NCBI RefSeq assembly: GCF_022387135.1
Contig: NZ_CP092462.1
Span: 3,348,001-3,412,000, forward strand
Length of the DNA stretch: 64,000 bases
Direction: 5' to 3'
Source: Comamonas sp. B21-038
GTDB lineage: Bacteria; Pseudomonadota; Gammaproteobacteria; Burkholderiales; Burkholderiaceae_C
Shown here piece after piece: positions 33,646-52,063 of this stretch. A program made the position numbers and the translations under genes. The notes beneath the pieces are model-generated. The model worked only from the letters and a program-made list of their open reading frames with translations, ran no database searches and was not told the DNA's origin. How positions within the stretch are numbered: position 1 is the first letter of the stretch; every line of letters starts with the position of its first letter.

Positions 33646-35049
33646 TCACAGTTGGAAGGCGACGCCGCGCACCAGCCCCTCTCCGACATCCCGCCACCAC
33701 CCCGGTGCACGGTAGGCATAGGTCGTGCTTTCTGCCATCTGCTGCCCGCACCAATGCTGGAGCCAGGCGATCTCCCGGGCGCTGTAGAACGCGGTCATCG
33801 CCTCGTAGTTCAAGAACAGGCTGCGCCCGTCGAGGTTCGCCGAACCGCACAGTGCCATGCGGTCATCGACCACCACCACCTTCGCATGCACCATGTGGGG
33901 GGAGCAATACACCTGGGCACCGGCAAGCACCAGCGCCCGCAATGCGCGCTCACGGGCCCAGTCGGCCAGGCGGTGGTTGGAGCACTGGGGCACCACCACG
34001 CGCAGCTGCACGCCGCGCCGGCAGGCCAGGCACCAGGCCTCCAGCAGCGCGTCATCGGGCACAAAATACGGGCTCACCAAGGTGATCGATGTCTGCGCAT
34101 GGAAGGCGCTGGCTAGGTAGAGCGCATGCAAGGTGTCATCGGCATGGTCGGGGCCGCTGGGCAGCCACTGGGCCCAGCCCTGGTCGCCCCCCCCCAGCGC
34201 CATCGCTGGCGACAGCCACATAGGGCGGCGCCGGCCTCTGGCCGCGCGCCAATCGGCCTCGAACTGCGCGGCCACCACGCCGGCCAGGGCCCCTTGCACG
34301 TTGAAGCTCAGGTCGACCCAGGCCGGGTGCCCGGCACTGCTGGGCAGAAAGTACTCATCGGCCAGATTGCGCCCGCCGCTCCAGACATGCACGCCGTCAG
34401 CCACCGCGAGCTTGCGGTGGTTGCGCAGATTGCTGCCACCGCGAATCGGCTGGAGCATCGGCACCATGAAGCGGCGCACCAGGACGCCCGAGCGCCGCAA
34501 CTGGCGCAGCCGCATGGGCAGCAGGCGCCAGCAGCCCACGCCATCGAGCAGCAGCCGCACCTTGACTCCGCGCTGCGCAGCCTGCTGCAGCGCCGTGCCG
34601 ATCTGACGACCGACGACATCGTCGGCAAACACATAGGTGCAGACATCCAGGCTGCGCTGCGCCTGCTCGATCAACTGCAGCAGCTGCTGCAAGGCCTGCA
34701 GGCCATCTTCATGGAACACCACCTCCGCATTGGGCTGGGCCGGATCGAGCTCCATGCTGGCCAGCAACTGGCCTGCCCAGCCGGGCACCTGAGGAGGCAC
34801 CGTGCTGCGGCGCTGGCCGGTGGGGGGGAGAACGGCATGCGCCGGCGGCCGCACCGCCTTGCGCGGCCCGAACACCAGAAAAAGAGGCAGGAAGAGATAG
34901 GGAAAGGTGACCATGCCCAGCACCCAGCCGATGGCGGACGCGGGATGGCGCCGCTGGTGCCCGGCACGCGTGACCAAGGTGTAGACCAGCAGCGCCACCA
35001 CCACCGCAATCGTGTGGCCCAGGCCCGAGAGGACGGTCACGCGCAGCAT
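33646..35049 (-). CDS. Phospholipase D superfamily, cardiolipin synthase-like
   Basis: 467 residues. Two N-terminal membrane helices (about 8-26 and 40-60, as in bacterial cardiolipin synthases) precede two HKD catalytic motifs: H211-K213-D218 (NHRKLAVAD) and H388-K390-D395 (VHAKVVVVDD). Such enzymes condense two phosphatidylglycerols into cardiolipin and glycerol in the inner membrane. A ClsA role is the simplest call; other PLD-type activity cannot be excluded. It follows arsC by 59 bases on the same strand. Confidence 0.9.
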   Translation of the reverse strand: MLRVTVLSGLGHTIAVVVALLVYTLVTRAGHQRRHPASAIGWVLGMVTFPYLFLPLFLVFGPRKAVRPPAHAVLPPTGQRRSTVPPQVPGWAGQLLASMELDPAQPNAEVVFHEDGLQALQQLLQLIEQAQRSLDVCTYVFADDVVGRQIGTALQQAAQRGVKVRLLLDGVGCWRLLPMRLRQLRRSGVLVRRFMVPMLQPIRGGSNLRNHRKLAVADGVHVWSGGRNLADEYFLPSSAGHPAWVDLSFNVQGALAGVVAAQFEADWRAARGRRRPMWLSPAMALGGGDQGWAQWLPSGPDHADDTLHALYLASAFHAQTSITLVSPYFVPDDALLEAWCLACRRGVQLRVVVPQCSNHRLADWARERALRALVLAGAQVYCSPHMVHAKVVVVDDRMALCGSANLDGRSLFLNYEAMTAFYSAREIAWLQHWCGQQMAESTTYAYRAPGWWRDVGEGLVRGVAFQL

Positions 35050-35108
35050 GGCCTACTGCCCGTCAGCGTGCGCGGGACGGCGGCTGGGCGCGCAAGCGGC
35101 CGGGCCCA

Positions 35109-35465
35109 TCAGAGCAGGTCAAGCACCCGCTCAGGCGGGCGGCACAGGCGTGCGCCCTTGGCGCTCACGACGATGGGCCGGTTGAGCAGCTCGGGATGGG
35201 CGGCGATCTGCGCAATCAGTTCGGCATCGCTCAAGCCCGCACGGCCCAGATCCAGCGCCTCATAAATGGCCTCCTTGCTGCGCATCACCTCGCGCACCGG
35301 CAGCCCCAGCTGCGCGATCAGCGCCGCGAGCTGCGCGCTGTCCAGCGGCGCACGCAGGTAGTCCACAATCCGGGGCTCGATGCCGCGGGCCTCCATCAGC
35401 GCCAGCGCGCCGCGTGAGTTGCTGCAGCGAGCGTTGTGGTAGATGGTGATCGTGTCTTGGGCCAT
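35109..35465 (-). CDS. arsC: Arsenate reductase (ArsC family, glutaredoxin-dependent type)
   Basis: 118 residues. The redox-active Cys is C14 in YHNARCSNSR, and the distal part NRPIVVSAKGARLCRPPERV carries the expected Arg-containing region. ArsC reduces arsenate to arsenite using glutathione and glutaredoxin; some relatives (YffB, Spx-like) lack this activity, so arsenate specificity is inferred. No arsB, arsR or acr3 is nearby, which weakens a dedicated resistance role. Sits 13 bases after the Roadblock-like gene, likely in the same transcript. Confidence 0.85.
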   Translation of the reverse strand: MAQDTITIYHNARCSNSRGALALMEARGIEPRIVDYLRAPLDSAQLAALIAQLGLPVREVMRSKEAIYEALDLGRAGLSDAELIAQIAAHPELLNRPIVVSAKGARLCRPPERVLDLL

Positions 35466-35478
35466 GCCCCCGATCTTA

Positions 35479-35883
35479 TTACAGAGAGGCTTCGAGCTCG
35501 GGCATGATGATGCGCGCCTTGGTCAGCGCCATACCCAGGTTGGCGGTGCGCCGGCAGACCAGCACGGCCACATACTCGGGGTTGGCCTTGCCGCGCATGA
35601 AGATATGGATCAGGTTGTCGCTGTTGACGATGATTTCCTGGAAGTAGTGGTGGCCATCGTCCTGCAGACCGCGCGACTTCTTGAACATGCGCTCGATCAT
35701 CGACACATTGGGACCGTTGAAGAGGTCGGCGGTGGCCGCGGCCACCAGGTCGATCACCTCGCGCGGGTGCGAATCGACCGTGCGAATGGCCAGCAGCATG
35801 CCGGTAGCCACATCGACATAGCCGGCAGCCAGGCATTCGGGCACAAATGTAGCGACCTTCTGCAAAACGGTATCCATGGACAT
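35479..35883 (-). CDS. Roadblock/LC7-like protein
   Basis: 134 residues, no signal or membrane segment. The alternating beta/alpha pattern (VATGMLLAIRTVD, FQEIIVNSDNLIHIFMRGKA, YVAVLVCRRTANLGMALTKA) fits the Roadblock/LC7 fold, which in bacteria often partners small GTPases or regulates motility and polarity, but no GTPase is nearby. It starts 51 bases downstream of the ABC-ATPase/phosphatase fusion, with AAGGAA as Shine-Dalgarno. A functional link to the fusion is likely but unproven. Confidence 0.7.
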   Translation of the reverse strand: MSMDTVLQKVATFVPECLAAGYVDVATGMLLAIRTVDSHPREVIDLVAAATADLFNGPNVSMIERMFKKSRGLQDDGHHYFQEIIVNSDNLIHIFMRGKANPEYVAVLVCRRTANLGMALTKARIIMPELEASL

Positions 35884-35934
35884 TGATGTATTCCTTCAAA
35901 GTGGGTTGGTAAGGGGCTGGCACCTCGGATGCGA

Positions 35935-37344
35935 TTAGCCCATCTTCTCGAGCAGCATTTCTTCATACGCCAACAGCGAGCGTTCTTGCTGCTCGGACTG
36001 CACGTACTGCGGCTCGATCTCGCGCACACGGCGCAGCGCTTCTTCAGCGGTGACGCCTTCAAAAACCAGCCAGGCCGCCAGCACGGTGCCGGTGCGGCCC
36101 AGGCCCGCCAGGCAGTGCACCGCCAGCACTTCGCCGGCCAGCAGCAGGCGCTTCATCTTCAGCATCAGCATCTGCAGCTGCGACACCGATGGCGGTTCCC
36201 GGTCATGCACCGGCAGATGCACATTGCGCAGGCCATTGCGCGCCAGCGCCGCCTGGTCGATATCGGTCTCGGTCAACGACACCAGCACGGTGATGCCGCA
36301 ACGCCTCAGCGCCTGCATGTCCACATCGGTGTCATTGACCACACCCGGCAGCGGCGTGCCGGCCAGCTTGCCCGGCACCAGCCAGGCAAAACCGCGCGGC
36401 CCGCGCGCGCCGGGCACATAGTGTTCGGCCGCCAGCACCGGGTTGGCCAGCGCCAGATCGGGCAATACCGCACGCTGGCCTTGGCGGGCCGCCTGCGCAG
36501 CGGTGCGGGCGGGGGCCTGCAGCGCTGCAGGTGCAGGTTCGGCCTGCATGGCCTCTTGCACCGTCTGCTGCGGCACTACCACGGCACAGCTGCCGCTGCG
36601 TACAAACTGCTGGCCTGCCGGGGAATACGGCGCGGAGAAAAAGTGGTCAGCGCGGCTCGTCTCCTGCACCGCACCACCGGCCAGCAGCAGCACATGGTCG
36701 GCCACGCGCTGGGCATGGCGCTGGTTGTGGGTCACCAGCAGCACAGCGCGCTCGCGGGCAATGCGTTTGAGCAGTTCCAGCAGCAGATAGGCGTCGTAGT
36801 CCTGCAAGTCGGCAGTGGGCTCATCGCACATCAGCAGCAAGGGTTGGGCAGCGGCTTCGCGCAGAATGGCTACCGCACGCTGGTGCATCGCAGACAGCTC
36901 CACCGTTGTTTGCGCCAGCAGCGGTTTGATATCGGCAAAGCCCATGCGGTCCAGATAGGCCTCGCACCAGGCACGGCGGTCCAAACCGGAGAGCAGATGG
37001 GCCTGCGGCAGCAACTCGCTGAGCGAATCCTGCACGCTTGACTGCATCAGGCGCACATGCTGGCGCACCAGGTGGGGCCGGTGGACGCCCGCCAGCGGCT
37101 GGCCGGCATAGCGCAACTGCCCCCATTGCGCAAAGCGCGGGTTTTCGTCATTGAGGCCCGCCAGACTGCGCAACACCGTGGACTTGCCCCCGCCGACCGG
37201 CCCCATCAGGACCGTGATGGCGCAAGGGGCGATCTGCAGTTGCAGGCTGGAGAGGATGACCTTGTCGCCATAGGCCACGCCCCAGTTGTCTGTTTCCAGA
37301 ACGGGAGTTGGTGTTTGCACGCGATGGGAGCCGCTGCGCGGCAT
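35935..37344 (-). CDS. ABC ATPase fused to a dual-specificity/tyrosine phosphatase domain
   Basis: 469 residues from the ATG at 37344 (alternatives at 37395 ATG, 37443 GTG, 37446 TTG). Residues about 15-235 are an ABC nucleotide-binding domain: Walker A GPVGGGKST (48-56), degenerate signature LSAMHQ (150-155) in place of LSGGQ, Walker B LLLMCDEPT (169-177), switch His206 in LVTHN. After an Ala/Gln/Pro linker (about 260-300), residues about 318-469 form a phosphatase: PGKLAGTPLPG, general-acid loop HDREPPS (D381), and P-loop HCLAGLGRTG with C411 and R417. No membrane segment and no permease are coupled to it. A perfect FNR box lies upstream. The function is unknown; phosphate- or phosphoprotein-linked signalling is a guess. 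Confidence 0.85.
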   Translation of the reverse strand: MPRSGSHRVQTPTPVLETDNWGVAYGDKVILSSLQLQIAPCAITVLMGPVGGGKSTVLRSLAGLNDENPRFAQWGQLRYAGQPLAGVHRPHLVRQHVRLMQSSVQDSLSELLPQAHLLSGLDRRAWCEAYLDRMGFADIKPLLAQTTVELSAMHQRAVAILREAAAQPLLLMCDEPTADLQDYDAYLLLELLKRIARERAVLLVTHNQRHAQRVADHVLLLAGGAVQETSRADHFFSAPYSPAGQQFVRSGSCAVVVPQQTVQEAMQAEPAPAALQAPARTAAQAARQGQRAVLPDLALANPVLAAEHYVPGARGPRGFAWLVPGKLAGTPLPGVVNDTDVDMQALRRCGITVLVSLTETDIDQAALARNGLRNVHLPVHDREPPSVSQLQMLMLKMKRLLLAGEVLAVHCLAGLGRTGTVLAAWLVFEGVTAEEALRRVREIEPQYVQSEQQERSLLAYEEMLLEKMG

Positions 37345-37499
37345 TGGGAGGTGGACGGGAAGCCAAGCCTGGCACCACCTCGGCGCGCCAGCCATCCAAT
37401 CACGCGGACGGCAAGCATCTCGGTGATTCAAAAAATGAAACACCAATAGTCAATTAATGTTTCAAAAATTCAGTTTAAGGGAAAACCCGAGATGGATGT

Positions 37500-37513
37500 T
37501 TGATCCAGATCAA
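37500..37513. promoter_or_regulatory. Perfect FNR/ANR box
   Basis: TTGATCCAGATCAA matches the FNR consensus TTGAT-N4-ATCAA with no mismatch. Its centre (37506.5) lies 32 bases from the centre of the minus-strand TAAACT hexamer, the class-II (about -41.5) geometry. That would start transcription near 37465 toward the ABC-ATPase/phosphatase fusion, implying activation at low oxygen. Confidence 0.75.
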
Positions 37514-37520
37514 AGGCGAT

Positions 37521-37540
37521 ATAGGTCACCTATCGATAGG
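37521..37540. promoter_or_regulatory. Overlapping palindromes beside the FNR box
   Basis: ATAGGT-C-ACCTAT (37521-37533) and CCTATCGATAGG (37529-37540, 12-bp perfect) overlap, 8 bases beyond the FNR box on the side away from the start. They may bind a second regulator. Confidence 0.35.
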
Positions 37541-37673
37541 GCAATAACACCACGGAGATCCAAATTAGGGGGAGCGTGCAGCCGCTGTGGTGATGCAGCT
37601 CGCCCGAATGCGCCGATGGAATGTGCGCGGCCAGCCTGCTGAACCGCCAGCCAGGCAAAGAGGATGAGAGGTA

Positions 37674-39308
37674 TCAGCGCGATGCCGAGCTGCGCATCGT
37701 GCGGATCAGCAAGATGACCGGCACCAGCCCCACCAGCACCAGCGCCAGCGACGGCAGCGCCGCCTCGCCCAGGCGCTCGTCGCGTGCCAGCTGGTAGGCC
37801 ACCACGGCCAGGGTGTCACTGTTGAAGGGCCGCAGCACCATCGTGGCGGGCAGCTCCTTCATCACATCCACAAAGACCAGCAACGCGGCGGTCAGGGCCG
37901 AGCGCCGCAGCAGCGGGCCATGCACGCGGACCAGAAGGCCGGCGCTGCCCACACCCAGCATGCGTGCCGATTCATCCAGACTCCTGGGAATGCGGGTGTA
38001 GCCGCTCTGCAGGGACTGCAGCGCAATGGCAGTGAAGCGCACCAGATAGGCCCAGATGATGCCGGCTGAGGTCGCGGTGATCAGCGCCGGAAAGGCCCAT
38101 TGCGGAAACGCCTGCTGCACCCAGCCCACTGGCAGCAGCAGGCCCACGACGATCACCGCGCCGGGCACCGCATAGCCCAGGCTGATGAGGCCCACCGTGC
38201 TGCGCGTGACCCAGTCCTGGCTGCGGCGGGCCGCATAGGCCGCCAGCAAGGCAATGGCCACGGCCAGCACGGCAGTGATCGCACCAAAGCGGATGCTGTT
38301 GCCGGCCCACTGCACAAAGCGGTCCAACGGAATCACCGACCAATCGGCCGCCAAGGGCCGCAGCATGAACATGACGGGCAGCACAAAGCCCAGCAGCACT
38401 GGCAGCGCACAGAGCAACCACGCTGCCAGGCAGCGCGCACCCTGCAGGCGATACGGCTGGGCCTCGGCCGATGAGGCGCGCCCCACCCCGCTGGTGACAA
38501 AGCGCATGCGCCGCTGCGCGCGCAGCTCCAGCTGCAGCACCACCAGCACCAAAACCAGCAGCATCGTGGCCAGCTGGGCTGCGGCACTGCGGTTCTCCAT
38601 CGACAGCCAGGCCTTGTAGATACCGGTGGTGAAGGTCTGAATGCCAAAGTAGCTCACTACCCCGAAATCGGCCAGGGTCTCCATCATCACCAGTGCCACA
38701 CCGGCCACCACCGCTGGCCGGGCCATCGGCAAGGCCACCGCCCAGATCCGGCGCGGCATCGAGGCGCCCAGCAGGCGCGCCGCTTCCATCAGGTGGGCGG
38801 CGCGCTCGCTCAGCGCCGTGCGCGCCAGCAGGTAGACATAAGGGTAGAGCGAGACCACAAACACCAGCACGGCGCCGCCGAGCGACCGCACCTCCGGCAG
38901 CAGCCGCCCTTGCAGCCCGAAGCTGGCACGCATCCACACCTGCAGCGGCCCGCTGAACTGCAGAAAATCGGTATAGGCATAGGCCGTCACATAGGCGGGC
39001 ATCGCCAGCGGCAGCAGCAGCAACCATTCCAAGGTTTTGCGGCCGCGAAAGTCGAACAGGGTCACCACCGCCGCGCACAGGGTGCCCACGACCGCCGAGC
39101 CCAACGCCACCAACAGCCCCAGCGCCACAGTGGTACGGATGTAGCCCGGCAGCACCGTCGCAAACATTTCGCGCACCACGGCAAACGCACCGAGGTCATT
39201 GCCCGCCCCGGGCAACCAGGCGCTAAAGACGGTGAGCACCGGCAACACCAGCACCAGGGCAATGGCTACGAGCAGCAGCTGACGACGGAAGCGGGCGAGA
39301 TTTTGCAA
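37674..39308 (-). CDS. Iron-type ABC transporter permease, fused double permease (FbpB-like)
   Basis: 544 residues with about twelve membrane helices in two homologous halves, each with a permease loop (EAARLLGASMPRRIWAVALP in the first half, ESARMLGVGSAGLLVRVHGP in the second). This double arrangement typifies the ferric-iron ABC importers (FbpB/SfuB/AfuB) and related thiamine transporters. Starts at TTG 39308; no ATG fits before the first helix. The ATPase lies divergently 88 bases away. No periplasmic binding protein is encoded in the window, so the substrate is uncertain. Confidence 0.88.
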   Translation of the reverse strand: MQNLARFRRQLLLVAIALVLVLPVLTVFSAWLPGAGNDLGAFAVVREMFATVLPGYIRTTVALGLLVALGSAVVGTLCAAVVTLFDFRGRKTLEWLLLLPLAMPAYVTAYAYTDFLQFSGPLQVWMRASFGLQGRLLPEVRSLGGAVLVFVVSLYPYVYLLARTALSERAAHLMEAARLLGASMPRRIWAVALPMARPAVVAGVALVMMETLADFGVVSYFGIQTFTTGIYKAWLSMENRSAAAQLATMLLVLVLVVLQLELRAQRRMRFVTSGVGRASSAEAQPYRLQGARCLAAWLLCALPVLLGFVLPVMFMLRPLAADWSVIPLDRFVQWAGNSIRFGAITAVLAVAIALLAAYAARRSQDWVTRSTVGLISLGYAVPGAVIVVGLLLPVGWVQQAFPQWAFPALITATSAGIIWAYLVRFTAIALQSLQSGYTRIPRSLDESARMLGVGSAGLLVRVHGPLLRRSALTAALLVFVDVMKELPATMVLRPFNSDTLAVVAYQLARDERLGEAALPSLALVLVGLVPVILLIRTMRSSASR

Positions 39309-39396
39309 ATGCGAATCACTGACGGGCCAAAAGCTGGCGATTCTACCTGCCAGGCACCTAAGCCCTTTGCCCGGGAGAGCCCTCTACAATGCGGCC

Positions 39397-40440
39397 ATGT
39401 TTCTAGAGGTCTCCCAACTGAATGTGCGCTATGCCGGGCGCCCCCGGCCTGCAGTGGCGCAGGTGTCTTTGCAGCTGCAGGCAGGCGATATCGGCGTGCT
39501 GATTGGCCCCTCGGGCTGCGGCAAGACCACCTTGCTGCGTGCAGTGGCCGGGCTCGAGCCGATCGCCAGCGGCGAGATCCGCCTGCAAGGCCAGGTCGTC
39601 AGCAGCAGCAGCGCTAATCTGCCGCCCGAGAAACGCCGCATCGGCATGGTGTTCCAGGATTACGCCCTTTTTCCGCATTTGACGGTGGGCAAGAATGTGG
39701 CCTTCGGCATCCACCAGTTGCCCCGGCCGGAGCAGCAGCAGCGCGTGCAGGAGGTGCTGCGCCTCGTGGGGCTGGAGAACAGCGCTGGGCGCTACCCGCA
39801 TGAGCTGTCAGGCGGCCAGCAGCAGCGGGTGGCGCTGGCCCGGGCGCTGGCGCCCCGGCCGCAGCTGATGCTGCTGGATGAGCCCTTCTCCAACCTCGAT
39901 GTGGATCTGCGTGAACGCCTGGCCCATGAGCTGCGCGACATCCTCAAGGCCGCGCAGGCGACCGCGCTGTTCGTCACGCACGACCAGCTGGAGGCCTTTG
40001 CGATTGGCGACCAGATTGGCGTGATGGAAAGCGGCCACCTGCACCAATGGGCCGATGCCAGCACCCTGTTCCAGCAACCCGCCAGCCGCTTTGTGGCCAA
40101 CTTCATCGGCCACGGCAGTCTGCTGCCGGCCACCCCGGTGTCGTCTGCGCAAGGCTGGCAGCTCGACACCCCGCTCGGTGCCATCGCCGCGCCGGAAGCA
40201 TCACAGGCCTGCGATGTGCTGCTGCGCGCCAGCGAGGTGGTGTTTGACCCTGCCTCGCCGTACCGCGCCACCTTGCTGCGCAAATCCTTCCGGGGATCGC
40301 AGTATCTCTACACCTTGCAGCTGCCCAGCCAGCAGCTGGTCTATGCGCAGGTCTCCAGCCAGCTGCAGCACGCCGTGGGCGACAGCATCGGCCTGCGTGC
40401 CCAACCCGAGCACCTGGTCTGCTTCGCGCCCGGGCAATGA
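39397..40440 (+). CDS. ABC transporter ATP-binding protein (FbpC-like)
   Basis: 347 residues. Walker A GPSGCGKT (37-44), Q-loop in MVFQDYALFPHLTV, signature LSGGQ (137-141), Walker B LMLLDEPFSNLD, switch His in FVTHDQLEAFAIGD; a C-terminal beta regulatory domain (about 245-347) has the OB-like repeats of the MalK/FbpC type. It energises import, probably with the divergent FbpB-like permease. A TACAAT box (39385-39390) ends 6 bases before the ATG, and no Shine-Dalgarno is seen, so the mRNA may be leaderless. Confidence 0.9.
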   Translation: MFLEVSQLNVRYAGRPRPAVAQVSLQLQAGDIGVLIGPSGCGKTTLLRAVAGLEPIASGEIRLQGQVVSSSSANLPPEKRRIGMVFQDYALFPHLTVGKNVAFGIHQLPRPEQQQRVQEVLRLVGLENSAGRYPHELSGGQQQRVALARALAPRPQLMLLDEPFSNLDVDLRERLAHELRDILKAAQATALFVTHDQLEAFAIGDQIGVMESGHLHQWADASTLFQQPASRFVANFIGHGSLLPATPVSSAQGWQLDTPLGAIAAPEASQACDVLLRASEVVFDPASPYRATLLRKSFRGSQYLYTLQLPSQQLVYAQVSSQLQHAVGDSIGLRAQPEHLVCFAPGQ

Positions 40441-42419: not shown

Positions 42420-45400
42420 TCAGTGCAGCGGGGCGGCGTCGGCCGCCTTGATCTCATTGTCCAGCACACACTGGCGGACCAGCGACAGCAGCACTTCGTC
42501 GGCATAGGGCTTGCCCAGGTAATGGTCCACGCCCAGGCTGGCCGCGTGCTCGCGGTGCTTGTCGGCAATGCGCGAGGTGATCATCACCACCGGCAGGTCC
42601 TTCATCGCCGCATCGGCACGGATTTCGCGCACCAGCTCGAAGCCGTCCATGCGCGGCATCTCGATGTCCGACAGCACCATGACCGGGCGCTCCTCGCGCA
42701 GACGGTCCAGCGCCTGCAGGCCATCGGCGGCCAGCGCTACGCGGTAGCCTTCGCGCTGCAGCAAACGCTGGGTCACGCGGCGCACGGTGATGGAGTCGTC
42801 AACCACCAGCACCAACGGCGTCTGCACCACCTGCTCGGCCAACTCACGCACCGGTGCCTTGGCCACTTCAGGGCGCACCGCCGCTTCGGCAATGCGGTCG
42901 GCAATCTGCTGGCCATACACGGTGTACAAGGCCACCGGGTTGTAGATCAGCACAATCGCACCGGATGCCAGCACCGACATGCCGGCCAGACCTGGCAGGC
43001 GCGCCAGTTGCGGGCCCAGGTTCTTGACCACGACTTCCTGGTTGCCCAGCACTTCATCGACGTGCACGGCCAGGCGCTTGGTGGCCGAGCGCAGGATCAC
43101 GACCGCGCTGGTCTTCTCCGGCTCTTCCTGGCTGCGCAGGTGGCCCTGCAGCAGCGCACCGGCAAAGTAATACGGCAGCTCCTGCTCGTTGTCGGTGTAG
43201 ACACCGTTGGCATGGGCCTGCTCGATCAGCGCCTTGGGCACGCGCCGCACGTATTCCACCAGGTTGGCGGGAACGCCGAACTTGAGATCGCCGGCGCGCA
43301 TCATCACCACCTGGGTCACCGCCGTGGTCAGCGGCATCACCATCTGGAAGCGGGTGCCCTTGCCGGTCTCCGACGTGGTCACGATGTGGCCACCCAGCGA
43401 CTGGATCTCGGTACGCACCACGTCCATGCCGATACCGCGCCCCGACAGCTCGGAGACCTCCGTGGCTGTGGAGAAGCCGGGGGCAAAGATCAGCTGCGCC
43501 GCCTTGTCCACATCGAGCGGCTCGTCGGCTGTGATCAGACCCGACTGCATGGCCTTGCGGCGAATGGCCTCAAGCTGCAGGCCCGCACCGTCGTCGTGGA
43601 TGGACACGGCGATATCGTTGCCTTCCTGGCGCACATCGATGGCGATCGTGCCCACCGGCTGCTTGCCTTGCGCCTTGCGCTCCTCCGGCGTTTCGATACC
43701 GTGCGCAACGCTGTTGCGCAGCAAGTGCTCGAAGGCCGGGGTGACCCGGTCCAGCACACCCCGGTCGATCTCGATCGAGGCACCGGTGATGTCCAGCTTG
43801 ACCTGTTTGCCCAGCTCCTTGGAGATCTGGCGCACGATGGCGTAAAGACGCTCGGAGATGGAGTCGAACTCCACCATGCGCGTGCGCAGCAGGTCCCGCT
43901 GCAGCTCGCGCGCCTGGCGGCCCTGGGCAATCAGATCGTCTTCGGCGCCTTCGGCGGTGCGCTGCAGATTGCGCTGCACCGTGCCCACGTCGTTGACCGA
44001 CTCGGCCATCATGCGGGTGAGTTCCTGCACGCGGGTGAAGCGGTCGAACTCCAGCGGATCGAAGCCCGAATCCGAATCCTTGGCCAGCGCCATGCGCGAC
44101 TGCATCTGCGACTCGGCCTGCATCTCCACATCGCGCAGCAAGGTGCGCAAGCGCTCCAGGTTGCTCGACATGTCCTTGATCGACGAGCGGATGTTGCTCA
44201 GGCGCATGTCCAGACGCGAGCGGGCAATCAGCACCTCTCCTGCCTCATTGACCAGGCGGTCGAGCAACTGCGAGCGCACACGCACCGATTGACCAGCAGC
44301 GGCACGCACCGGCGCCATGCGCAGCATCAGCGGCTTGTGCTGTACGCCAGCGCTGGCGTCAGCGGCATCGGCTGCTTGCAGCGCCTGCTCTGCACTGGCG
44401 CTTTCCTGTGCAGCGGGCGTGCTGGCCGCCACTTCGGCCACCACTTCGCCCATCTCGGTGGCCGCAGGGGCCTGCTGGGGCAAGGCACCCTCTGCCAGCA
44501 CCTGGTTGCCCCGCTCCTGCAGACCGACAAATTCCTGCTGCAGGCCGTCGTAACGCGCCAGCAGAATCTCGATGTCCTGGCCGGTCAGGTTTTCGGTGCC
44601 GATGTCCTCGACCTCGGACTCCATGCGGTGGGACATTTCGCCCAGGCGCATCGCGCCTGCCAGCCGCGCACTGCCCTTGAGCGTGTGCAGATGGCGCAGC
44701 ACTTCGCCGCGCGGCGGCAGGTACTGCGGGTCGGAAGACCACTCGCGCAGCGCCCCACCCAGCTTGGGCAGCAGCTCCTGCGCTTCTTCTTCGAAAATCA
44801 GGAACAGGTCAGGGTCAATGACGTCGACGACTTCGATCGCATCGTCATTGCGCAACTCCAGCAGATCGGGCAACGCAGCGGCCGGCACGGCGGCTGCAGC
44901 TGCAAAGGCGCGGGCCGGCTCGGCTGCGCGGGCCGGATGCTCGCGCAACTCGCCCAGGCCAGAGGGCTCGAGGTCGAACTCGGCCATGCCATAAGGCGGA
45001 TGCAATTGCGAGTTGATTTCCTGGTTCGCAATGTCTTCGAGGTCCTGCACCACGATCTCGCTGGCCGGTTTGACAAAACCGGCTGCCAGCTGGTGCAGCA
45101 GCTTGCGGATCTCCGAGCCCGCTGCCTGGCAGGTATTGAGCCAGGACACCTCCGGGTTGGAGAAGTTGTGGATGTGCGAGAGCGCATGCTCCAGCGACCG
45201 GGCCAGCTCGGACAACGAGCTGAAACCGACCGTGGACGAGCTGCCTGCCAATGAATGGGCGTAGGCGATCGCATCTTCGGGGAAATTGCGGTTGGGCGCC
45301 TGGGCCCAGGCGTACAGCACCTTCTCCAGGTTGTGCGACCAGTTCTCGGCTTCAGCGAGGTAGACATTGAACAGCGCCGGGCTTACGCCCAGCACATTGG

Positions 45401-48400
45401 CCACCTCGGCCGGCTCCTGAGCATCGGCCGGCGGCTCGGTGTCAGACGGCGCTGGCACGGGAGCCAGCGCCTCTGCTTGCACGTCGGCGGGTGCTTCCGG
45501 ATGGGCCTGCGTTTCCGCGTGGACGGGTAGCTCGGCCGCTGCCTCAGCCTCTGCGGGAGCGGCGGGCCGCAGCGCGGGTTCGGGCGCCTGCGGCTCGGCA
45601 GCCGACACGAACGCCTCGTTCAGGTCCGCTGCCGGGATGTCTGGATGCGGCTGCAGTAGTTCAGTCGGCTCCGTCACTTCCAACGCCTGCGGAACCGCCT
45701 CGGGGAACGCCAGATCATCGGGCACCACGAGCAGGGTCTGGGGCTCGGCCACCGGCTCCTCGGGCAGCGCTTCGAGCGCGGGCAGCATGGTGTCCGCGAA
45801 CTCGATGGCATCGAATCCAGTCGGGGTGGCCGGCTCCAGCGAGGCGGGCACGTCGGTCAGATCCAGCGACGGCAGCTCCAGCGGCAAGCGGGTTGGCGCC
45901 GGTTCCAGCTTGGCAGCCTCGAGGTCGGCCACAAATTCCAAACCCGCGTCCATCGATACAAAGTCCAGCGCGCTGTCGTGCGGCTGCAGCGTCTCGGGAT
46001 CCTGCACAGTGGGTGCCTTGGCCTCGGCACTGGCCATCGCCTGGGCAAACTCCGAGAAATCGACCTCCTCGGCGCTTTCCGGCGCCATCGCCAGCGGCAC
46101 CAGGCCCGAAGGCGTGGTCAAGGCTGGCTCGGGCTCCAGCGCAGCGGGCGGATCCAGCTCCAGGTCGAGGCCGTCGAGCGGCCAGGCCAGCGCTGGCGCC
46201 GGCTCGGCCGGCGCATCCGGTGCGGCAGCAGGCGCTGGCGGAGGCAGCTCCAACGCGGCCCCTTCTTCTGCAGCGTCGGCTGCGGCAGAGGCATCGGCCT
46301 CCAGCGCCGAAGACTCGGTACCGTGCGGCCACTGCTCCGTCTGCGGCACCTGGCCAGGCGCGGCAGGCACCACCAAGGGCAGGTGCACGCCATCCAGACG
46401 CATGGCATCGGCGGAGATGCGGAAGATCTCCGGGTTCCAGGTGGACTGGCGCTGCGCGCCAATGTCCTCGGCCCAGCGGCCAAAACCGGTCAGTGCCTCG
46501 GCGCTCAGCGCCAGCAGCGGCGCATCGGCCGGTTTGTGTTCGGCCAGCCAGCTGTTGAGTACCTGTTCCATCGACCAGGCCGCATCGCCATACTGCACCA
46601 GCCCAACCATGCGGGAGCTGCCCTTGAGCGTGTGGAAGGCGCGGCGCAAGGTCGTCAGCGCCTCGGCATCGGCCGCATCGCGGCGCAGGGATTGCAGTGC
46701 CTGGCCGCCGGTCTGCACGACCGACTGGGCCTCTTCCAAGAAGATGTCCAGCAGTTCCTGGTCCAGTGCCTCCTCGGAAACCTGCGGCTGTGCCGGGGTT
46801 GCCGCCACAGGGGATGGTTCTGGTGCTGGTGCTGGTGCCGATACCGGTGCCGGGGCAGGCGCAAAAAACTGCAGATCCGGGGCGAGCACCGCAGGCGCCT
46901 TGGGCGCCGGGGCCGGGCTGGCCTCGAACAGGGGCGCCGGAATGGTCGGCGCGAAGTAGACGGAATCGTCTTCCGGTTCCTCGGGCGCATCGGGCGCTGC
47001 GGCCGGCGCGGGTGCCACCGGGGCAGGCGCGACATCGCCGGCCCTTTGGGTGCCCATCACAATGCGCAGCTCGCCACTGGTCGCATCAAACACAAACAGC
47101 TTGCGCGCCAGGGTGCGCTGGTAGCCCAGCATGTCGAGCAGAAAGCCCAGCGCGCCGAGGCTGTTGCCCAGCTTCTCAAAAACCACGGGCTTGTCGTCGT
47201 CGGCCACCTGGCCGGCGGCCAGCTGATCCACCACCAAACGCAGGTGCTGCGTGGCAGCGACAGCCTGGTCCAGGCCCAGCACCGACAGCACGCCGCGCAT
47301 CTGCGACAGCGATCCGGTGACGGTGCCCAGCATCGAGACATCCTCGGGGTTGCGGAAATACTGGTCGAGGTGCTTTTCTGCCTCTGCCAGCGTGGAGTGG
47401 AGCTCATCGACCACGCTGCCCATGGTCTGGTGGTCGCTGACGCGGCGGTACAGCTCTTCGACCCAGGTCTCCAGAGGCTCGGGCGGCTGGTCGGCCAGCA
47501 CATGGTCGAGGCGCTGCGCCAGGCGGTCAGCACGCTCGCGCATCAGCGCAGGCTTGACATCCAGCGACTCCAGGTTGGCCTGTAGGTACAGCACGGCAGT
47601 GGCGACTTCCATCGCCATCGGGGTCGAAGGCGGCGTGCCGGTGCTCACCAGGCGTTCGGTCACCCGGCCCAGCGCTGCGCCCAGCTCGTCGGCACCAATA
47701 TGCAGCTTGTGCAGCGATTCGCGGATCAGGTGGAACTGGTCGGCGACCGGCTTGATCTTGTAGCGGTCACCATCGGCCAGCGACGACCACAGCTCGGCAG
47801 CTGACTCCAGGCGCTTGCGCGCCTGCGCGAGCACAGCCGGGTCATACAGGCCAAAGCGCTCCTGGCCGTAGTTCACGCCTTGCAGCGCCTCGGTCTGCAG
47901 GCTGACGCGCACCGCTTGCAGCACCGCCGCCTTGGCCTCATCCGGGCCCTGGGCAACAGCACAGAAAAAATTCAGCTCATGCTGCAGGCTCTGGTCCACA
48001 TCGCTGCCACCCTTGGCATGCGCTGCGAACTGCATGATCACCCGCGACGCCGAGCGCTTCACATAGAGGTCGGGGTCGAGCAACTTGTACGCCAGCGCGT
48101 CGAAGAAGCCTGCGGCCACCTTCCAGAACAGTTTCAAAGGGGCTTGCGTCTGGCCCTGGGCCAGGCCCAGGCAGACGGCGGTCAAATCCTGCGCTGCACG
48201 CGCGTCGGCAGATTTGATGATCTGCAGCATGTCCGCATCGAGGCGCTCACGGGCGCCGCGGTCCAGTGGCAGTGCGGCCACTGGCGGCGTCTTCGGTTCC
48301 TGTTGCGCCTGGTCGCCCTGCCAGAGATCGGCCGGGTGGACACGCTCCACACCGGTGAAGGCCTGCATTTCCTTGTACTGCGGAAACAGCGCTACGAAGG

Positions 48401-48806
48401 AGACGTTGCGCCCCTTGAGCACATGGCTCAGGTACTCCAGCAGCGCAAACGACGTGCGCTCCATCAGCGCGACCGATTTCTCGGTGCACAGGTGGGGCTT
48501 GGCCGCAAAGCGCTGCGCCGCCACTTCCATCAGGCCCACCAGCTCGGCCGCCTGGCCCACACCCACCATCTGCAACGCACCCTTGACCTGGTGCAGGTAC
48601 TGCTTGGCCACGCGGATACCGGTGGTGTCGATCGCCTCCAGGTCCGATACCTTGGCCGCTTCCACATCCCGGCTGTAACGAAGCAATGCCTTGACCGTGG
48701 ATTCCAGTGACCGGCGAACCTCGTCATTGATCCACGCCAATGGCCCGAGATCCCTCTCTTCTGTTGGCTGTGCGTTTTCCGCTTTATTTTCGATAGCTAT
48801 AGACAT
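42420..48806 (-). CDS. chpA: ChpA/PilL-type hybrid CheA histidine kinase of the Pil-Chp system
   Basis: 2128 residues. Hpt-type domains with their His: H72 (YLHQVKGAL, degenerate), H725 (FHTLKGSS), H1184 (AHSLAGSSS, degenerate) and H1374 (LHTLKGSA). These are joined by long Pro/Ala/Glu-rich acidic linkers (especially about 590-680 and 830-1120). Then come dimerisation (about 1500-1600), ATPase (about 1680-1830: HLLRNSVAHGIE, DDGAGL, GRGIGMDVV), CheW-like (about 1850-1980) and receiver (D2047 in VLSDIEMPRMDG) domains. It phosphorylates PilG and PilH to control type IV pilus extension, twitching and surface sensing. Last of five co-directional genes. No cheR (pilK) or cheB (chpB) homologue accompanies it. 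Confidence 0.95.
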   Translation of the reverse strand: MSIAIENKAENAQPTEERDLGPLAWINDEVRRSLESTVKALLRYSRDVEAAKVSDLEAIDTTGIRVAKQYLHQVKGALQMVGVGQAAELVGLMEVAAQRFAAKPHLCTEKSVALMERTSFALLEYLSHVLKGRNVSFVALFPQYKEMQAFTGVERVHPADLWQGDQAQQEPKTPPVAALPLDRGARERLDADMLQIIKSADARAAQDLTAVCLGLAQGQTQAPLKLFWKVAAGFFDALAYKLLDPDLYVKRSASRVIMQFAAHAKGGSDVDQSLQHELNFFCAVAQGPDEAKAAVLQAVRVSLQTEALQGVNYGQERFGLYDPAVLAQARKRLESAAELWSSLADGDRYKIKPVADQFHLIRESLHKLHIGADELGAALGRVTERLVSTGTPPSTPMAMEVATAVLYLQANLESLDVKPALMRERADRLAQRLDHVLADQPPEPLETWVEELYRRVSDHQTMGSVVDELHSTLAEAEKHLDQYFRNPEDVSMLGTVTGSLSQMRGVLSVLGLDQAVAATQHLRLVVDQLAAGQVADDDKPVVFEKLGNSLGALGFLLDMLGYQRTLARKLFVFDATSGELRIVMGTQRAGDVAPAPVAPAPAAAPDAPEEPEDDSVYFAPTIPAPLFEASPAPAPKAPAVLAPDLQFFAPAPAPVSAPAPAPEPSPVAATPAQPQVSEEALDQELLDIFLEEAQSVVQTGGQALQSLRRDAADAEALTTLRRAFHTLKGSSRMVGLVQYGDAAWSMEQVLNSWLAEHKPADAPLLALSAEALTGFGRWAEDIGAQRQSTWNPEIFRISADAMRLDGVHLPLVVPAAPGQVPQTEQWPHGTESSALEADASAAADAAEEGAALELPPPAPAAAPDAPAEPAPALAWPLDGLDLELDPPAALEPEPALTTPSGLVPLAMAPESAEEVDFSEFAQAMASAEAKAPTVQDPETLQPHDSALDFVSMDAGLEFVADLEAAKLEPAPTRLPLELPSLDLTDVPASLEPATPTGFDAIEFADTMLPALEALPEEPVAEPQTLLVVPDDLAFPEAVPQALEVTEPTELLQPHPDIPAADLNEAFVSAAEPQAPEPALRPAAPAEAEAAAELPVHAETQAHPEAPADVQAEALAPVPAPSDTEPPADAQEPAEVANVLGVSPALFNVYLAEAENWSHNLEKVLYAWAQAPNRNFPEDAIAYAHSLAGSSSTVGFSSLSELARSLEHALSHIHNFSNPEVSWLNTCQAAGSEIRKLLHQLAAGFVKPASEIVVQDLEDIANQEINSQLHPPYGMAEFDLEPSGLGELREHPARAAEPARAFAAAAAVPAAALPDLLELRNDDAIEVVDVIDPDLFLIFEEEAQELLPKLGGALREWSSDPQYLPPRGEVLRHLHTLKGSARLAGAMRLGEMSHRMESEVEDIGTENLTGQDIEILLARYDGLQQEFVGLQERGNQVLAEGALPQQAPAATEMGEVVAEVAASTPAAQESASAEQALQAADAADASAGVQHKPLMLRMAPVRAAAGQSVRVRSQLLDRLVNEAGEVLIARSRLDMRLSNIRSSIKDMSSNLERLRTLLRDVEMQAESQMQSRMALAKDSDSGFDPLEFDRFTRVQELTRMMAESVNDVGTVQRNLQRTAEGAEDDLIAQGRQARELQRDLLRTRMVEFDSISERLYAIVRQISKELGKQVKLDITGASIEIDRGVLDRVTPAFEHLLRNSVAHGIETPEERKAQGKQPVGTIAIDVRQEGNDIAVSIHDDGAGLQLEAIRRKAMQSGLITADEPLDVDKAAQLIFAPGFSTATEVSELSGRGIGMDVVRTEIQSLGGHIVTTSETGKGTRFQMVMPLTTAVTQVVMMRAGDLKFGVPANLVEYVRRVPKALIEQAHANGVYTDNEQELPYYFAGALLQGHLRSQEEPEKTSAVVILRSATKRLAVHVDEVLGNQEVVVKNLGPQLARLPGLAGMSVLASGAIVLIYNPVALYTVYGQQIADRIAEAAVRPEVAKAPVRELAEQVVQTPLVLVVDDSITVRRVTQRLLQREGYRVALAADGLQALDRLREERPVMVLSDIEMPRMDGFELVREIRADAAMKDLPVVMITSRIADKHREHAASLGVDHYLGKPYADEVLLSLVRQCVLDNEIKAADAAPLH

Positions 48807-48851
48807 GCAACAGTCCCCGATTGCGGGTCAAAATGAAACAGCAGACATGGG

Positions 48852-51119
48852 TCAGGCAATCTTGAACCGAGACACCGACTGGCGCAGTTCCTCGGCCATT
48901 TGCGACAGCTCACGCACCTGCTGCGCTGTGGTACGGGTGCCATCACTGGTCTGCTCCGTCACCGCAAAGATATGCTGGATATTCTCTGCCACATCGTTGG
49001 CCTGAACTGCTTCGTCGGACGCAGAACGGGAAATTTGCTGAATCAGATCTGCCAGCTCACGCGAAACGCGGTCAATTTCCGCCAGTGCCGTACCGGCGCT
49101 GTCCGACAGACGGGCCCCTTCCACCACACCCTGGGTCGAGCGCTCCATAGCGGCCACCGCGTCCTGGGTGTCGGTCTGAATCGCCTTCACCAGCACCGAG
49201 ATCTGGCGCGTTGCATCGGCCGAGCGCTCAGCCAGACGCTGCACTTCCTCGGCCACCACCGAGAAGCCGCGGCCGGCTTCACCGGCGGAGGCCGCCTGAA
49301 TGGCCGCATTCAATGCCAGCACGTTGGTCTGTTCGGTAATGTCCGAGATCAGGTCGGTAATTTCACCAATCTCCTGCGAGGACTCACCCAGGCGCTTGAT
49401 GCGCTTGGAGGTGTCCTGGATCTGGTCCCGGATCGAGTTCATACCACCGATCGCGTTTTCCACCGCCTGCAGGCCCGACTCGGCCGCCATCAGCGACTTG
49501 CGCGCCACCGAAGCCGATTCCTGCGCCTGTGACGACACGAGGTTAATACGGGTCGCCATGTCGAGAATCGACTTGCCGGTTTCGCGAATCTCACGCAGTT
49601 GCTCGGTCGACGCAGCCAGCAGCTCGGTCGACGTGGAGTCCACGGTCGACGTGGTCTGTGCCACGCGGGTCGCCGTGTTCTGCACGCTGCCCACCAGCAT
49701 GCGCAGCTCTTCCACCGTGTAGTTCACCGAGTCGGCAATCGCGCCGGTGATGTCTTCCGTCACGGTCGCTTCCTGGGTCAGATCCCCTTCAGCGACGGAC
49801 TGCAACTCGTTCATCAGCCGCAAAATGGCAGCCTGGTTGGCGTCATTGAGACGCTTGGCCTCCTGCTCCTGGCGGGTCGCTTCCTGTTGCAGCGATTCTG
49901 CAGCGCGGCGGCGGTTCAAGCTGTCTGCCAGCTGCAGGCGCACCAGGCCCCACACACCCAGGCCCACCAGCAACGCTGCCAGCACGATGCCCACCAGGTA
50001 CAGCCAGATGCGGTCGGACCAGCTGTTCAGGTCCGCCTGCAGTGCTTCCAGGCCCTTGCGCAGCGGATCGCTGGCCGACTGGATCGAGACTTCGGCCTCA
50101 CGGGCTTCCGAGATGCCCTTGAGGTTGCTCAGCACCGCCGAGCCATCCTTCAACGTGATGTCGTATTGGGACGAGAGTTCCTGCAGCTTGTCGCGCACGG
50201 CGCCATCGCGGGCGGGGCTCAGGCGCAGCTCGGCGCTGCCGTTGAGCAGACCGGCGACGATTTCCTTGAAGGTGTTCAAGTCCTTGCCCAGCAGAAATAC
50301 CGCCTCGGCATTGGCACCCGAGGCGCTCTGGAAGTCGTTGGCCGACTTGCCGATACGCTGGGTCAGCATCGCCAGCTGGCTGGCTGCGGCGATTTCAGCG
50401 GGCGGAGCCGCTTGCTGGAGCTTCAGGCTGACCACCGCCTCGCTCAGCTCGAGCAGGGTCTGCGTGTTCTTGTGAATCGCCTGCAAGTCCTTGTTCATCG
50501 CGACCAGCGAGGCTTTCTGCTTGACCACGGCATCGCTCTTGCTCGCGGTGCGGTCCGAGGCTTCCACCAGCGGCGCCAGCACCTCGGCGTAGGAACTGCC
50601 CAGCGCCTTGATCGCCGGGTCTTCCGAGCCGGAGTTCAGGCCATCGATGTTCTTCTTCAGAATCGACGAGGCTTCTGCCACTTCGGCAAATGCCTGCTCA
50701 TTGCCGTTGACCGCCTGACCCACCGATTTGGCCAGACGCTGCGACTGGGTCAAGGCCTGGCCGGTGGCTGCCAGCTGGCCGCCTGTCGTGCGCGACTGCA
50801 AGATCGCCCACACCGCCAGCGCAAAGAACACCACCAGACCCACGATGACGATGGTCAGCAGGGTCTTTTGGTGTTTGGCAGCCGGTGCCGCACCCAGCAC
50901 CGGCAGCGTCACCAGATCGTCGGAGGCGGTCTCGCCCTCGACCAGCTGGGCCATGTAATCGTCCTGCACCGCAGCGCCGGATACATTGGCCGCCGTCTTG
51001 GCGGGGGACACGCCGTCACCGGTCGAGCCTTCGGAGAGCATCACCTGGTCACCATCTGGGAAGATGCTGACGCCTGGGTCTGCCACGTCTTCTTTGCGTT
51101 TGAATAGTTTGTTGAACAT
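48852..51119 (-). CDS. pilJ: PilJ-like methyl-accepting chemotaxis protein
   Basis: 755 residues from the ATG at 51119. An unusually long cytoplasmic-side N-terminus (about 85 residues, acidic) precedes TM1 (86-107). A periplasmic PilJ sensor region of about 300 residues with a type IV pili methyl-accepting pattern follows, then TM2 (about 405-428), HAMP-like, and the signalling domain with its hairpin tip ([20 protein letters not shown]). PilJ senses surface contact or pilins and feeds ChpA. Between pilI and chpA. Confidence 0.93.
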
Positions 51120-51157
51120 ACAAATACCGAAAGGGATGAAGCCGCGGAAGCCCCGCA

Positions 51158-51685
51158 CTAAACCGTGATATCGAGAAAATCGGGCGCATTGGCCAGCAGC
51201 TGCAGGTTGAGTTCCTGCCACTGCTCGCCACTGGCGGATGTATAGAGCGCACCAAAAAATTCCGGCGCATCGGCCGGCTTGTCTTTGGAATGCGCGAAGT
51301 CATTGCTGCCGCGCAAGCCTTCCAGCTGCTCGACAAACAGGGCGGCATTGACGCCCATCATGGGGTTGAGCGCGACGACCGAAGCCCCGGCAAACACCTG
51401 TTCGCTGCGTGCGACAGGCAGGCCCAGCATGCGGGCCAGATCCACCACCGTCAACAAAATACCCCGGATGCTGGTCACACCGAGCATCCAGGGTTTGGTG
51501 TAGGGCACAGGCTCCACCCCGCTCCAGCCCAGCACTTCGCCGGACTGGCTCAAAGGCAGCAGAAAGTTCCGGCCACTGATCTTGACTGCCAGCCACGAGG
51601 CACCGACCGCCGTCTGGTTGCGTGCCTGGCTCAGACGATCGGCCAGCCGGGTTTGCAGCTCTCGCAAGTCTTCGCGCTGTGCCAT
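51158..51685 (-). CDS. pilI: PilI, CheW-like adaptor
   Basis: 175 residues. A single CheW domain (about 28-160): [40 protein letters not shown]. It couples PilJ to ChpA in the chemosensory array at the cell pole. Three bases separate it from pilH, 38 from pilJ. Confidence 0.93.
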
Positions 51686-51688
51686 GCC

Positions 51689-52054
51689 TTATCCCAGTGC
51701 CTCGATCTTGGCCTTGAGTTCGGCCGGATCCACCGGCTTGGTCACATAGCCACGTGCGCCCTGGCGCATGCCCCAGACCCGGTCGGTTTCCTGGTTCTTG
51801 CTGGTGCACATGATGATCGGGATATCCGCATACTCCGGGCTGCGGGTGATCAGGCGGGTCAGCTGAAAGCCGTTCTGCCCTGGCATCACGACGTCCATCA
51901 GGATCAGGTCGGGCCGGTCTTCCGCCAGGCGCAGCATCGCCTCGTCCGAATTTTGCGCAGTGCGCACCACCATACCCTGGCGTACAAGCAGATCGCTCAA
52001 AAACATCAATTCGGTTTTTGAGTCATCAACGATAAGAACTTTTTGAATAGGCAC
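51689..52054 (-). CDS. pilH: PilH single-domain response regulator
   Basis: 121 residues, receiver fold only. Acidic pair in VLIVDDSKTE, phospho-acceptor Asp in LILMDVVMPGQNG, the Thr/Lys switch in IMCTSKNQ and YVTKPVDP. In the Pil-Chp pathway PilH sets phosphate flow and retraction, and PilG sets extension. PilH is assigned by its position immediately after pilG. Confidence 0.93.
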   Translation of the reverse strand: MPIQKVLIVDDSKTELMFLSDLLVRQGMVVRTAQNSDEAMLRLAEDRPDLILMDVVMPGQNGFQLTRLITRSPEYADIPIIMCTSKNQETDRVWGMRQGARGYVTKPVDPAELKAKIEALG

Positions 52055-52063
52055 GACCCCTCC

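What the first reader, a model, noticed from the sequence alone, without database searches (positions are those of the whole stretch)
35935..37344. ABC ATPase fused to a tyrosine/dual-specificity phosphatase
One 469-residue protein carries an ABC nucleotide-binding domain (Walker A 48-56, Walker B 169-177, His206) and a phosphatase with all key residues (D381, C411, R417). The ABC signature is degenerate (LSAMHQ), the Walker A has GPVGGGKST, and no permease is coupled to it. This is not an architecture I know as a named family. ATP-dependent conformational control of a phosphatase is an attractive hypothesis.
Basis: partly seen in the sequence, partly recalled or inferred. Interest (0 to 1): 0.85.

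Follow-up and report, generated by a model that had tools for sequence, protein, structure and literature searches.

The report
ABC ATPase–phosphatase fusion with roadblock partner
A conserved bacterial protein that joins an ATP-binding domain to a phosphatase is nearly always encoded beside a small "roadblock" protein and, in some relatives, inside a Ras-like GTPase operon, so it looks like a new part of a bacterial small-GTPase signalling circuit.

Summary
In detail: one stop-free minus-strand ORF (35935-37344) carries an ABC nucleotide-binding domain and a dual-specificity phosphatase (DSP). In 89 distinct fused relatives the catalytic motifs of both domains are nearly invariant, while the ABC signature LSGGQ is absent from all 89.

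The next gene, 35479-35883(-), encodes 134 residues that match no Pfam model but are predicted to have the roadblock/LC7 fold (as in MglB and MglC). All 16 loci picked by the fusion have it. Of 97 partner genes, 91 have the fusion adjacent; five of the other six are cut off by sequence ends.

In 27 of the 97 an MglA-type small GTPase gene lies nearby, often with a second roadblock gene, a winged-helix-like gene and a ferredoxin-reductase-type gene. Of 26 more distant relatives of the partner, 13 lie near such a GTPase and none near an ABC or DSP of this kind.

Best explanation: an ATP-binding phosphatase module added to "Group 3"-like MglA/MglB signalling. Gating by ATP, the substrate, and a hinted link to type IV pili are inferred. 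New variant of a known kind.

The parts
35935..37344 (-). ABC-DSP fusion protein, 469 aa (start ATG 37344 or GTG 37320)
   Evidence: single frame; Pfam ABC_tran + DSP-type PTP families; relatives in 15 of 200 family genomes
36595..37299 (-). ABC nucleotide-binding domain, residues about 16-250; nearest solved relatives PstB-like
   Evidence: AlphaFold model and Foldseek top hit E. coli PstB 9k3s_C, 1.2e-20
37177..37203 (-). Walker A GPVGGGKST, residues 48-56
   Evidence: GKS in 88 of 88 with letters there, of 89 rows; position
36880..36897 (-). eroded ABC signature LSAMHQ, residues 150-155
   Evidence: of 89 rows: LSGGQ in 0, GG in 0, Leu kept in 74, Ser in 28
36814..36840 (-). Walker B plus catalytic Glu LLLMCDEPT, residues 169-177
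   Evidence: Asp 89 of 89, Glu 88 of 89
36400..36594 (-). variable linker, residues about 251-315
   Evidence: pLDDT below 50 at model residues 260-305; length varies widely in the alignment
35950..36399 (-). dual-specificity/tyrosine phosphatase domain, residues about 316-465
   Evidence: Pfam Tc-R-P, PTP-SAK, DSPc; best PDB sequence hit 25xa_A, 3.5e-25
36088..36120 (-). phosphatase loop VHCLAGLGRTG with C411 and R417
   Evidence: Cys and Arg 87 of 87 with letters there; general acid Asp 87 of 88
35479..35883 (-). partner gene p134: 134-aa roadblock/LC7-fold protein, 51 nt downstream of the fusion
   Evidence: no Pfam/NCBIfam hit; AlphaFold pLDDT 83.7, Foldseek to roadblock 3kye 1.8e-7, MglC 7ct3, MglB 3t1r; adjacent in 16 of 16 fusion loci

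Best explanation
The gene encodes an accessory subunit of a small-GTPase/roadblock signalling module. SHOWN by sequence: an ABC-type ATPase domain with intact ATP-binding and catalytic motifs but a family-wide loss of the signature motif, fused to an intact cysteine phosphatase, and genetically tied to a protein predicted to have the roadblock fold (p134). In part of the relatives the pair lies in an operon with an MglA-type GTPase and a second roadblock protein. INFERRED: p134 forms a roadblock dimer that scaffolds or regulates the ABC-DSP and, where present, the GTPase. ATP binding (not transport) by the ABC domain changes how it docks on the roadblock dimer and so exposes or activates the DSP, which removes a phosphate from a partner and resets or relays the GTPase state. 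In this Comamonas genome the operon GTPase is missing, and MglA-type GTPases encoded elsewhere may take its place. The physiological output may be type IV pilus control.
For: Partnership: 16 of 16 loci selected by the fusion carry p134 next to it. Of 97 p134 genes over 180 bits in 94 loci (ten duplicate loci dropped), 91 have the fused gene within 1 kb on the same strand, 87 of them within 162 nt between matched stretches. Fold: the p134 model matches MglB, MglC, Ragulator and Asgard roadblock structures, TM 0.5-0.7. Context: of 97, 27 have an MglA-type GTPase and 24 another roadblock gene within 3.5 kb, 27 the winged-helix-like gene and 29 a ferredoxin-reductase-type gene within 5 kb (Pfam checks on single members). 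In the tree all 28 GTPase-linked rows among 98 lie outside one 65-row group, itself weakly supported, that holds the window. Distant p134-like genes: 13 of 26 (in 12 of 20 loci) have the GTPase, 16 of 26 another roadblock, 0 of 26 an ABC or DSP of this kind within 3.5 kb. In 200 family genomes a GTPase like the window genome's is found in 9 of 15 with the fusion and 17 of 185 without, Fisher p = 8e-6. Own genome: two such GTPases, one in a winged-helix-like/GTPase/roadblock operon. Type IV pili: pilT/pilU-family genes lie 0.9-3.0 kb from the pair in nine loci (four of these 18 genes checked); the window's pair is about 5 kb from a Hpt-CheA-CheW-REC protein.
Against: 70 of 97 partner genes have no such GTPase nearby (some on short contigs), and 6 of 15 fusion-bearing family genomes show none at E 1e-10 with a query from the window's own genome, so the GTPase is not obligatory or can be divergent. 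The co-occurrence test ignores shared ancestry and that query favours close kin. 13 of 26 distant p134-like genes (8 of 20 loci without any) show no such GTPase. p134 has no match to Robl_LC7 in Pfam (0 of 16 members), and a profile search of PDB sequences found no roadblock; the assignment rests on a predicted model, a fold search and weak HMM matches of two relatives (3e-5, 6e-5). The fusion model's pTM of 0.57 leaves the placement of its two domains unsure. No complex model could be made. ATP gating, the substrate and the pilus link are untested; the pilus link could be housekeeping synteny.
Confidence: 0.55

Rival explanations
1. ATPase subunit of an ABC transporter (for example of the iron-type permease gene just upstream) that gained a phosphatase tail.
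For: A binding-protein-dependent permease gene lies 278-329 nt upstream on the same strand, depending on the start codon; the ABC domain is PstB-like.
Against: That permease has its own canonical ATPase divergently encoded at 39367-40440(+); the permease cluster occurs in only 9 loci of the comparison; LSGGQ is absent from 89 of 89 fused sequences.
Confidence: 0.05
2. A two-gene ATP-sensing phosphatase with a roadblock adaptor that has nothing to do with small GTPases; the GTPase operons are secondary.
For: 70 of 97 partner genes lack the GTPase nearby; the pair alone is what is kept. A distant p134-like gene in Ruegeria sits among dynamin-family genes instead.
Against: 13 of 26 distant p134-like genes, all without the fusion, lie near a GTPase of this kind; GTPase presence is enriched in fusion-bearing genomes.
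Confidence: 0.3
3. An anti-phage or toxin-linked element: the DSP matches families named for polymorphic toxin and 'Swiss Army Knife' systems.
For: Pfam Tc-R-P and PTP-SAK names; PADLOC mad3 match 4e-13 confined to residues 146-222, i.e. around the Walker B.
Against: No other PADLOC model at E 1e-3 in the four proteins searched; very slow p134 evolution; the mad3 match is what any ABC ATPase might give (inference).
Confidence: 0.05

Closest known systems
Group 3 MglA/MglB systems of beta/gammaproteobacteria (PMC4316618; passages and section 18 read)
   Same: MglA-type GTPase with one or two roadblock (MglB) genes and a protein of unknown function, in beta/gammaproteobacteria. The paper reports a G5 'DAR' and loss of the usual G4 lysine; DAR is in 18 of 27 GTPases from partner loci here.
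   Different: The word phosphatase does not occur in the paper, and the ABC passage shown concerns sequences excluded as noise. Here an ABC-DSP fusion is added, and in the window's locus the GTPase is missing.
Actinobacterial conservons (CvnA-D; PMC4316618 section 18; abstract start of PMC13343842 in a search listing)
   Same: Operon of a roadblock protein, an MglA-type GTPase, a DUF protein and an ATP-using enzyme.
   Different: Conservons use a sensor histidine kinase, not an ABC-DSP fusion; different phylum.
Soluble DSP/PTP phosphatases such as DUSP23 and Sulfolobus SsoPTP
   Same: Phosphatase domain with the C(X)5R loop and general acid.
   Different: As solved, single-domain proteins; no ABC domain or roadblock partner.
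PstB and other ABC ATPases (PstB, PhnK)
   Same: Fold, Walker A/B, Q-loop, H-loop.
   Different: LSGGQ lost; C-terminal phosphatase; no dedicated permease.

Membership tests
ABC ATPase domain | Walker A, Q-loop, Walker B with catalytic Glu, H-loop | tested here: met
   88/88, 88/88, Asp 89/89 and Glu 88/89, His 88/89 in 89 aligned fused sequences
ABC ATPase domain | LSGGQ signature | tested here: not met
   LSAMHQ here; LSGGQ in 0 of 89, Ser kept in 28 of 89
ABC transporter ATPase | dedicated permease partner | tested here: not met
   permease cluster in only 9 loci; a separate ABC gene is divergent to it in the window, L034, L053, L054 and L055
DSP/PTP cysteine phosphatase | HC(X)5R loop and general acid Asp | tested here: met
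   Cys and Arg 87/87, Asp 87/88; Pfam above cut-off
DSP/PTP cysteine phosphatase | phosphatase activity | not testable with these tools
   needs assay
Roadblock/LC7 (p134) | roadblock fold | tested here: met
   predicted model only: pLDDT 83.7, Foldseek 1.8e-7 to 3kye, further MglB/MglC hits
Roadblock/LC7 (p134) | Pfam Robl_LC7 match | tested here: not met
   0 of 16 members with the limit at E 10, though HMMER's filters drop most weak matches
Group 3 MglA system | MglA-type GTPase in the operon | tested here: inconclusive
   near 27 of 97 partner genes; not in the window's locus, but two such GTPases elsewhere in the genome
Group 3 MglA system | G5 DAR motif, G4 without the usual Lys | tested here: inconclusive
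   DAR in 18 of 27, an [NT]KxD string in 6 of 27; the own genome's two GTPases have neither string (crude string search)
Group 3 MglA system | placement in the Group 3 clade of a GTPase tree | not tested
   reference sequences of that paper were not fetched

The most novel reading that the evidence does not exclude
A previously undescribed class of nucleotide-gated signalling enzyme: an ABC domain that has given up transport and its trans signature motif, and uses ATP binding on a roadblock dimer to switch a fused cysteine phosphatase, linking cellular ATP (and, through the neighbouring ferredoxin-reductase-globin, redox or oxygen state) to Ras-like GTPase polarity or type IV pilus control.
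Probability: 0.25. Interest if true: 0.85.

Novelty: new variant of a known kind. Interest (0 to 1): 0.62.

Why it matters
Group 3 MglA systems were described in 2014 from genomes (PMC4316618, parts read), and my search listings showed no experimental paper on them. This finding adds an enzyme pair, the ABC-DSP plus a roadblock-fold protein invisible to Pfam, to that kind of circuit. It gives two activities (ATPase, phosphatase) that can be assayed directly, and a test of whether an ABC domain can act as an ATP-controlled switch for another enzyme.

Tried and rejected
Frameshift or misassembly joining two genes: rejected (89 distinct fused ORFs in 89 loci after removing duplicates). Transporter ATPase: rejected as main reading. 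Defence system: only a partial mad3 match. The sequence route to the roadblock fold failed: Pfam and a profile search of PDB sequences gave nothing meaningful; the fold search did. A test for the full-length ferredoxin-reductase-globin protein in 200 family genomes rang in none at E 1e-60 and had no positive control, so it says nothing. No sigma-70-like promoter was found in 34900-37900. Literature: searches returned nothing; (lists partly capped) showed no paper whose title or abstract start describes the fusion; only PMC4316618 was opened, in parts. 'Undescribed' means no more than that.

Near-identical species were kept. An earlier motif count (100 rows, 90 distinct) still held duplicate loci and could hold one ORF twice; one search replaces it. 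Distant p134-like loci: 20 regions were fetched of the larger number listed. The six of 97 without an adjacent fusion are L061, L079, L080, L095 (contig ends), the first copy in L124 (end of the fetched stretch) and L104 (DSP present, ABC absent, unexplained).

Full report
WHAT IS THERE. The finding lies on the minus strand. Window 35935-37344 reads without a stop for 469 residues. Residues 32-178 match ABC_tran, and the C-terminal part matches Tc-R-P, PTP-SAK and DSPc, all above Pfam's cut-offs. AlphaFold gives two confident domains (mean pLDDT 84.5) joined by a stretch of pLDDT below 50 at model residues 260-305; pTM is 0.57, so their mutual placement is unsure. The top fold match is E. coli PstB, in line with the best NCBIfam match, PstB at 104 bits, far under its 343-bit cut-off. 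The nearest relatives of the partner gene are Comamonas koreensis and Comamonas sp. JUb58, both 100% identical, so the window is from Comamonas.

THE FUSION IS A FAMILY. In 200 genomes of the same family, 15 (the own genome included) carry a relative at E 1e-40 or better; weaker relatives were not looked at. All 16 loci from those genomes, the window included, encode both halves in one frame. Against four Comamonas relatives, dN is well below dS in both domains. After removal of duplicate loci there are 89 distinct fused ORFs in 89 loci. Aligned, they show Walker A GKS in 88 of 88, Q-loop Gln in 88 of 88, Walker B Asp in 89 of 89, catalytic Glu in 88 of 89 and H-loop His in 88 of 89. The phosphatase Cys and Arg are kept in 87 of 87 and the general acid in 87 of 88 (denominators leave out rows with a gap). 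The signature is the exception: LSGGQ is found in 0 of 89, its Leu in 74 and its Ser in 28. Since in canonical ABC dimers the signature of one subunit closes the ATP site of the other (general knowledge), these domains probably do not work as a standard ATP-sandwich motor.

THE PARTNER. The next gene, 35479-35883(-), 51 nt downstream, encodes 134 residues that match no Pfam or NCBIfam family. Its model (pLDDT 83.7) has the order helix, two strands, two helices, three strands, helix, and Foldseek matches it to roadblock/LC7 proteins: 3kye (1.8e-7), MglC 7ct3, MglB, Ragulator and Asgard roadblocks. All 16 fusion loci have this gene adjacent, at 65-84% identity, more conserved than the fusion (30-57%). 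Searching the other way, a scan of GTDB genome contigs for the partner gave 79 distinct loci (180 relatives were confirmed and only the best 80 kept). Pooling these with the loci from genome searches and dropping ten duplicate loci leaves 97 partner genes over 180 bits in 94 loci, of which 91 have the fused gene within 1 kb on the same strand. Five of the six exceptions are cut by sequence ends; L104 has only the DSP. In L071 the ABC domain is split over two frames, a frame break in that one record. Gene order is mostly fusion-then-partner; 18 of 92 rows in the tree have the reverse.

THE WIDER OPERON. In part of the relatives (Derxia, Gallionella, Marinobacter, Rhodocyclaceae, Lysobacterales, Vandammella and gammaproteobacterial MAGs) the pair lies with an MglA-type small GTPase gene and mostly a second roadblock gene (PF03259), and a gene with no Pfam match that I call winged-helix-like, an assignment by eye. 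Some also have a [2Fe-2S] ferredoxin-FAD-NAD reductase with a bacterial globin domain. Counts over 97: GTPase 27, other roadblock 24, winged-helix-like 27, ferredoxin-reductase type 29; these are HMM matches to profiles built from these same loci, and only single members were checked in Pfam. Of 26 distant p134-like genes (52-77 bits, 20 loci) 13 lie near the GTPase and 16 near another roadblock, and none near an ABC or DSP of this kind. The simplest history is that a winged-helix/GTPase/roadblock operon came first and the fusion joined it; the direction is inferred, because the tree is rooted at the midpoint only for drawing. In that tree none of the 65 rows of one weakly supported group, which holds the window, has the GTPase nearby; all 28 linked rows among 98 lie outside it.

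CLOSEST DESCRIPTION. The published match is the 'Group 3' MglA system, described from genomes as a protein of unknown function with receiver-like and winged-helix-like ends, an MglA and one or two MglB, almost exclusively in beta/gammaproteobacteria, with a G5 'DAR' and a G4 often lacking Lys (PMC4316618; passages and section 18 read). DAR is present in 18 of 27 GTPases here and in neither GTPase of the own genome, so the match is partial. The word phosphatase does not occur in that paper.

THE WINDOW'S OWN GENOME. The operon GTPase is missing here. Two MglA-type GTPases lie elsewhere in the 5.18-Mb chromosome, at C1:404386-404901 and C1:5083002-5083565. The second is in an operon with a winged-helix-like gene (weak DprA_WH match), a Robl_LC7 protein and a 119-residue protein. 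Across 200 family genomes a GTPase like it is found in 9 of 15 with the fusion and 17 of 185 without (Fisher p = 8e-6). Shared ancestry is not corrected, the query favours close kin, and the two calls are taken to use the same draw because the handles shown agree.

TYPE IV PILI. In nine loci (Stenotrophomonas, Frateuria, Hydrogenophaga, Rhodoferax and MAGs) two genes of the pilT/pilU cluster lie 0.9-3.0 kb from the pair; the four of these 18 genes that were checked pass TIGR01420. In the window the pair is about 5 kb from a 2128-residue Hpt-CheA-CheW-REC protein, preceded by MCP-like, CheW-like and two receiver ORFs (by eye), which looks like the Pil-Chp cluster (name recalled). MglA stimulates type IV pili in Myxococcus (abstract start of PMC7519303, listing). 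Ordinary synteny could explain both placements.

MECHANISM. Most likely the roadblock dimer is a docking platform; the ABC domain binds ATP on it; and this state controls the phosphatase, whose target is unknown. What is shown is anatomy, conservation and linkage. What is inferred is dimerisation, gating, substrate and output. The main rival is the same phosphatase-adaptor pair with no tie to GTPases.

VERDICT. The fusion is real, conserved and, as far as the searches named under Tried and rejected go, undescribed. It is best filed as a new variant of the MglA/roadblock kind of signalling module. I do not file it as a member of an ABC transporter family, because the signature and permease tests failed.

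Noticed in passing
window 42420-52450 (-): A 2128-aa protein with Hpt (three stretches), CheA-type kinase, CheW and REC domains (Pfam), preceded by MCP-like, CheW-like and two single-receiver ORFs (by eye): looks like a type IV pilus chemosensory (Pil-Chp) cluster about 5 kb from the fusion.
   Followed up: partly
L209, L210 (Ruegeria plasmids): Five Ruegeria plasmids hold a distant relative of the partner (34-39% identity); in the two looked at it lies among four dynamin-family genes on one strand, followed by a serine/threonine kinase gene.
   Followed up: partly
L126:7883-9481, L102:2563-3735, L125:8895-10109: Ferredoxin-reductase-type proteins with a bacterial globin domain (Pfam for L126; by eye for the others) near the pair: a possible redox or oxygen input.
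   Followed up: partly
L142:6802-8929 (own genome C1 about 5082300-5084430): Separate winged-helix-like / MglA-type GTPase / Robl_LC7 / 119-aa operon; the 119-aa protein has no Pfam match, and relatives of it (62% and 55% identity) lie elsewhere in the stretches L050 and L113.
   Followed up: partly
L104:6235-6702: Only locus with the DSP and partner but no ABC domain; could be a real loss or a MAG assembly fault.
   Followed up: no
L071:5471-6147: In this Comamonas testosteroni record the ABC domain matches in two frames, a frame break inside the domain.
   Followed up: no
window 37674-40440: An iron-type permease gene and its ATPase gene are divergently oriented, with the fusion downstream of the permease; the ATPase is canonical, so the pair is complete without the fusion.
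   Followed up: yes
L063:4825-7402; L120:6508-7393: Delftia sp. PS-11 has partner genes on both sides of one fusion; a Nitrosomonadales MAG has two partner genes in tandem.
   Followed up: no
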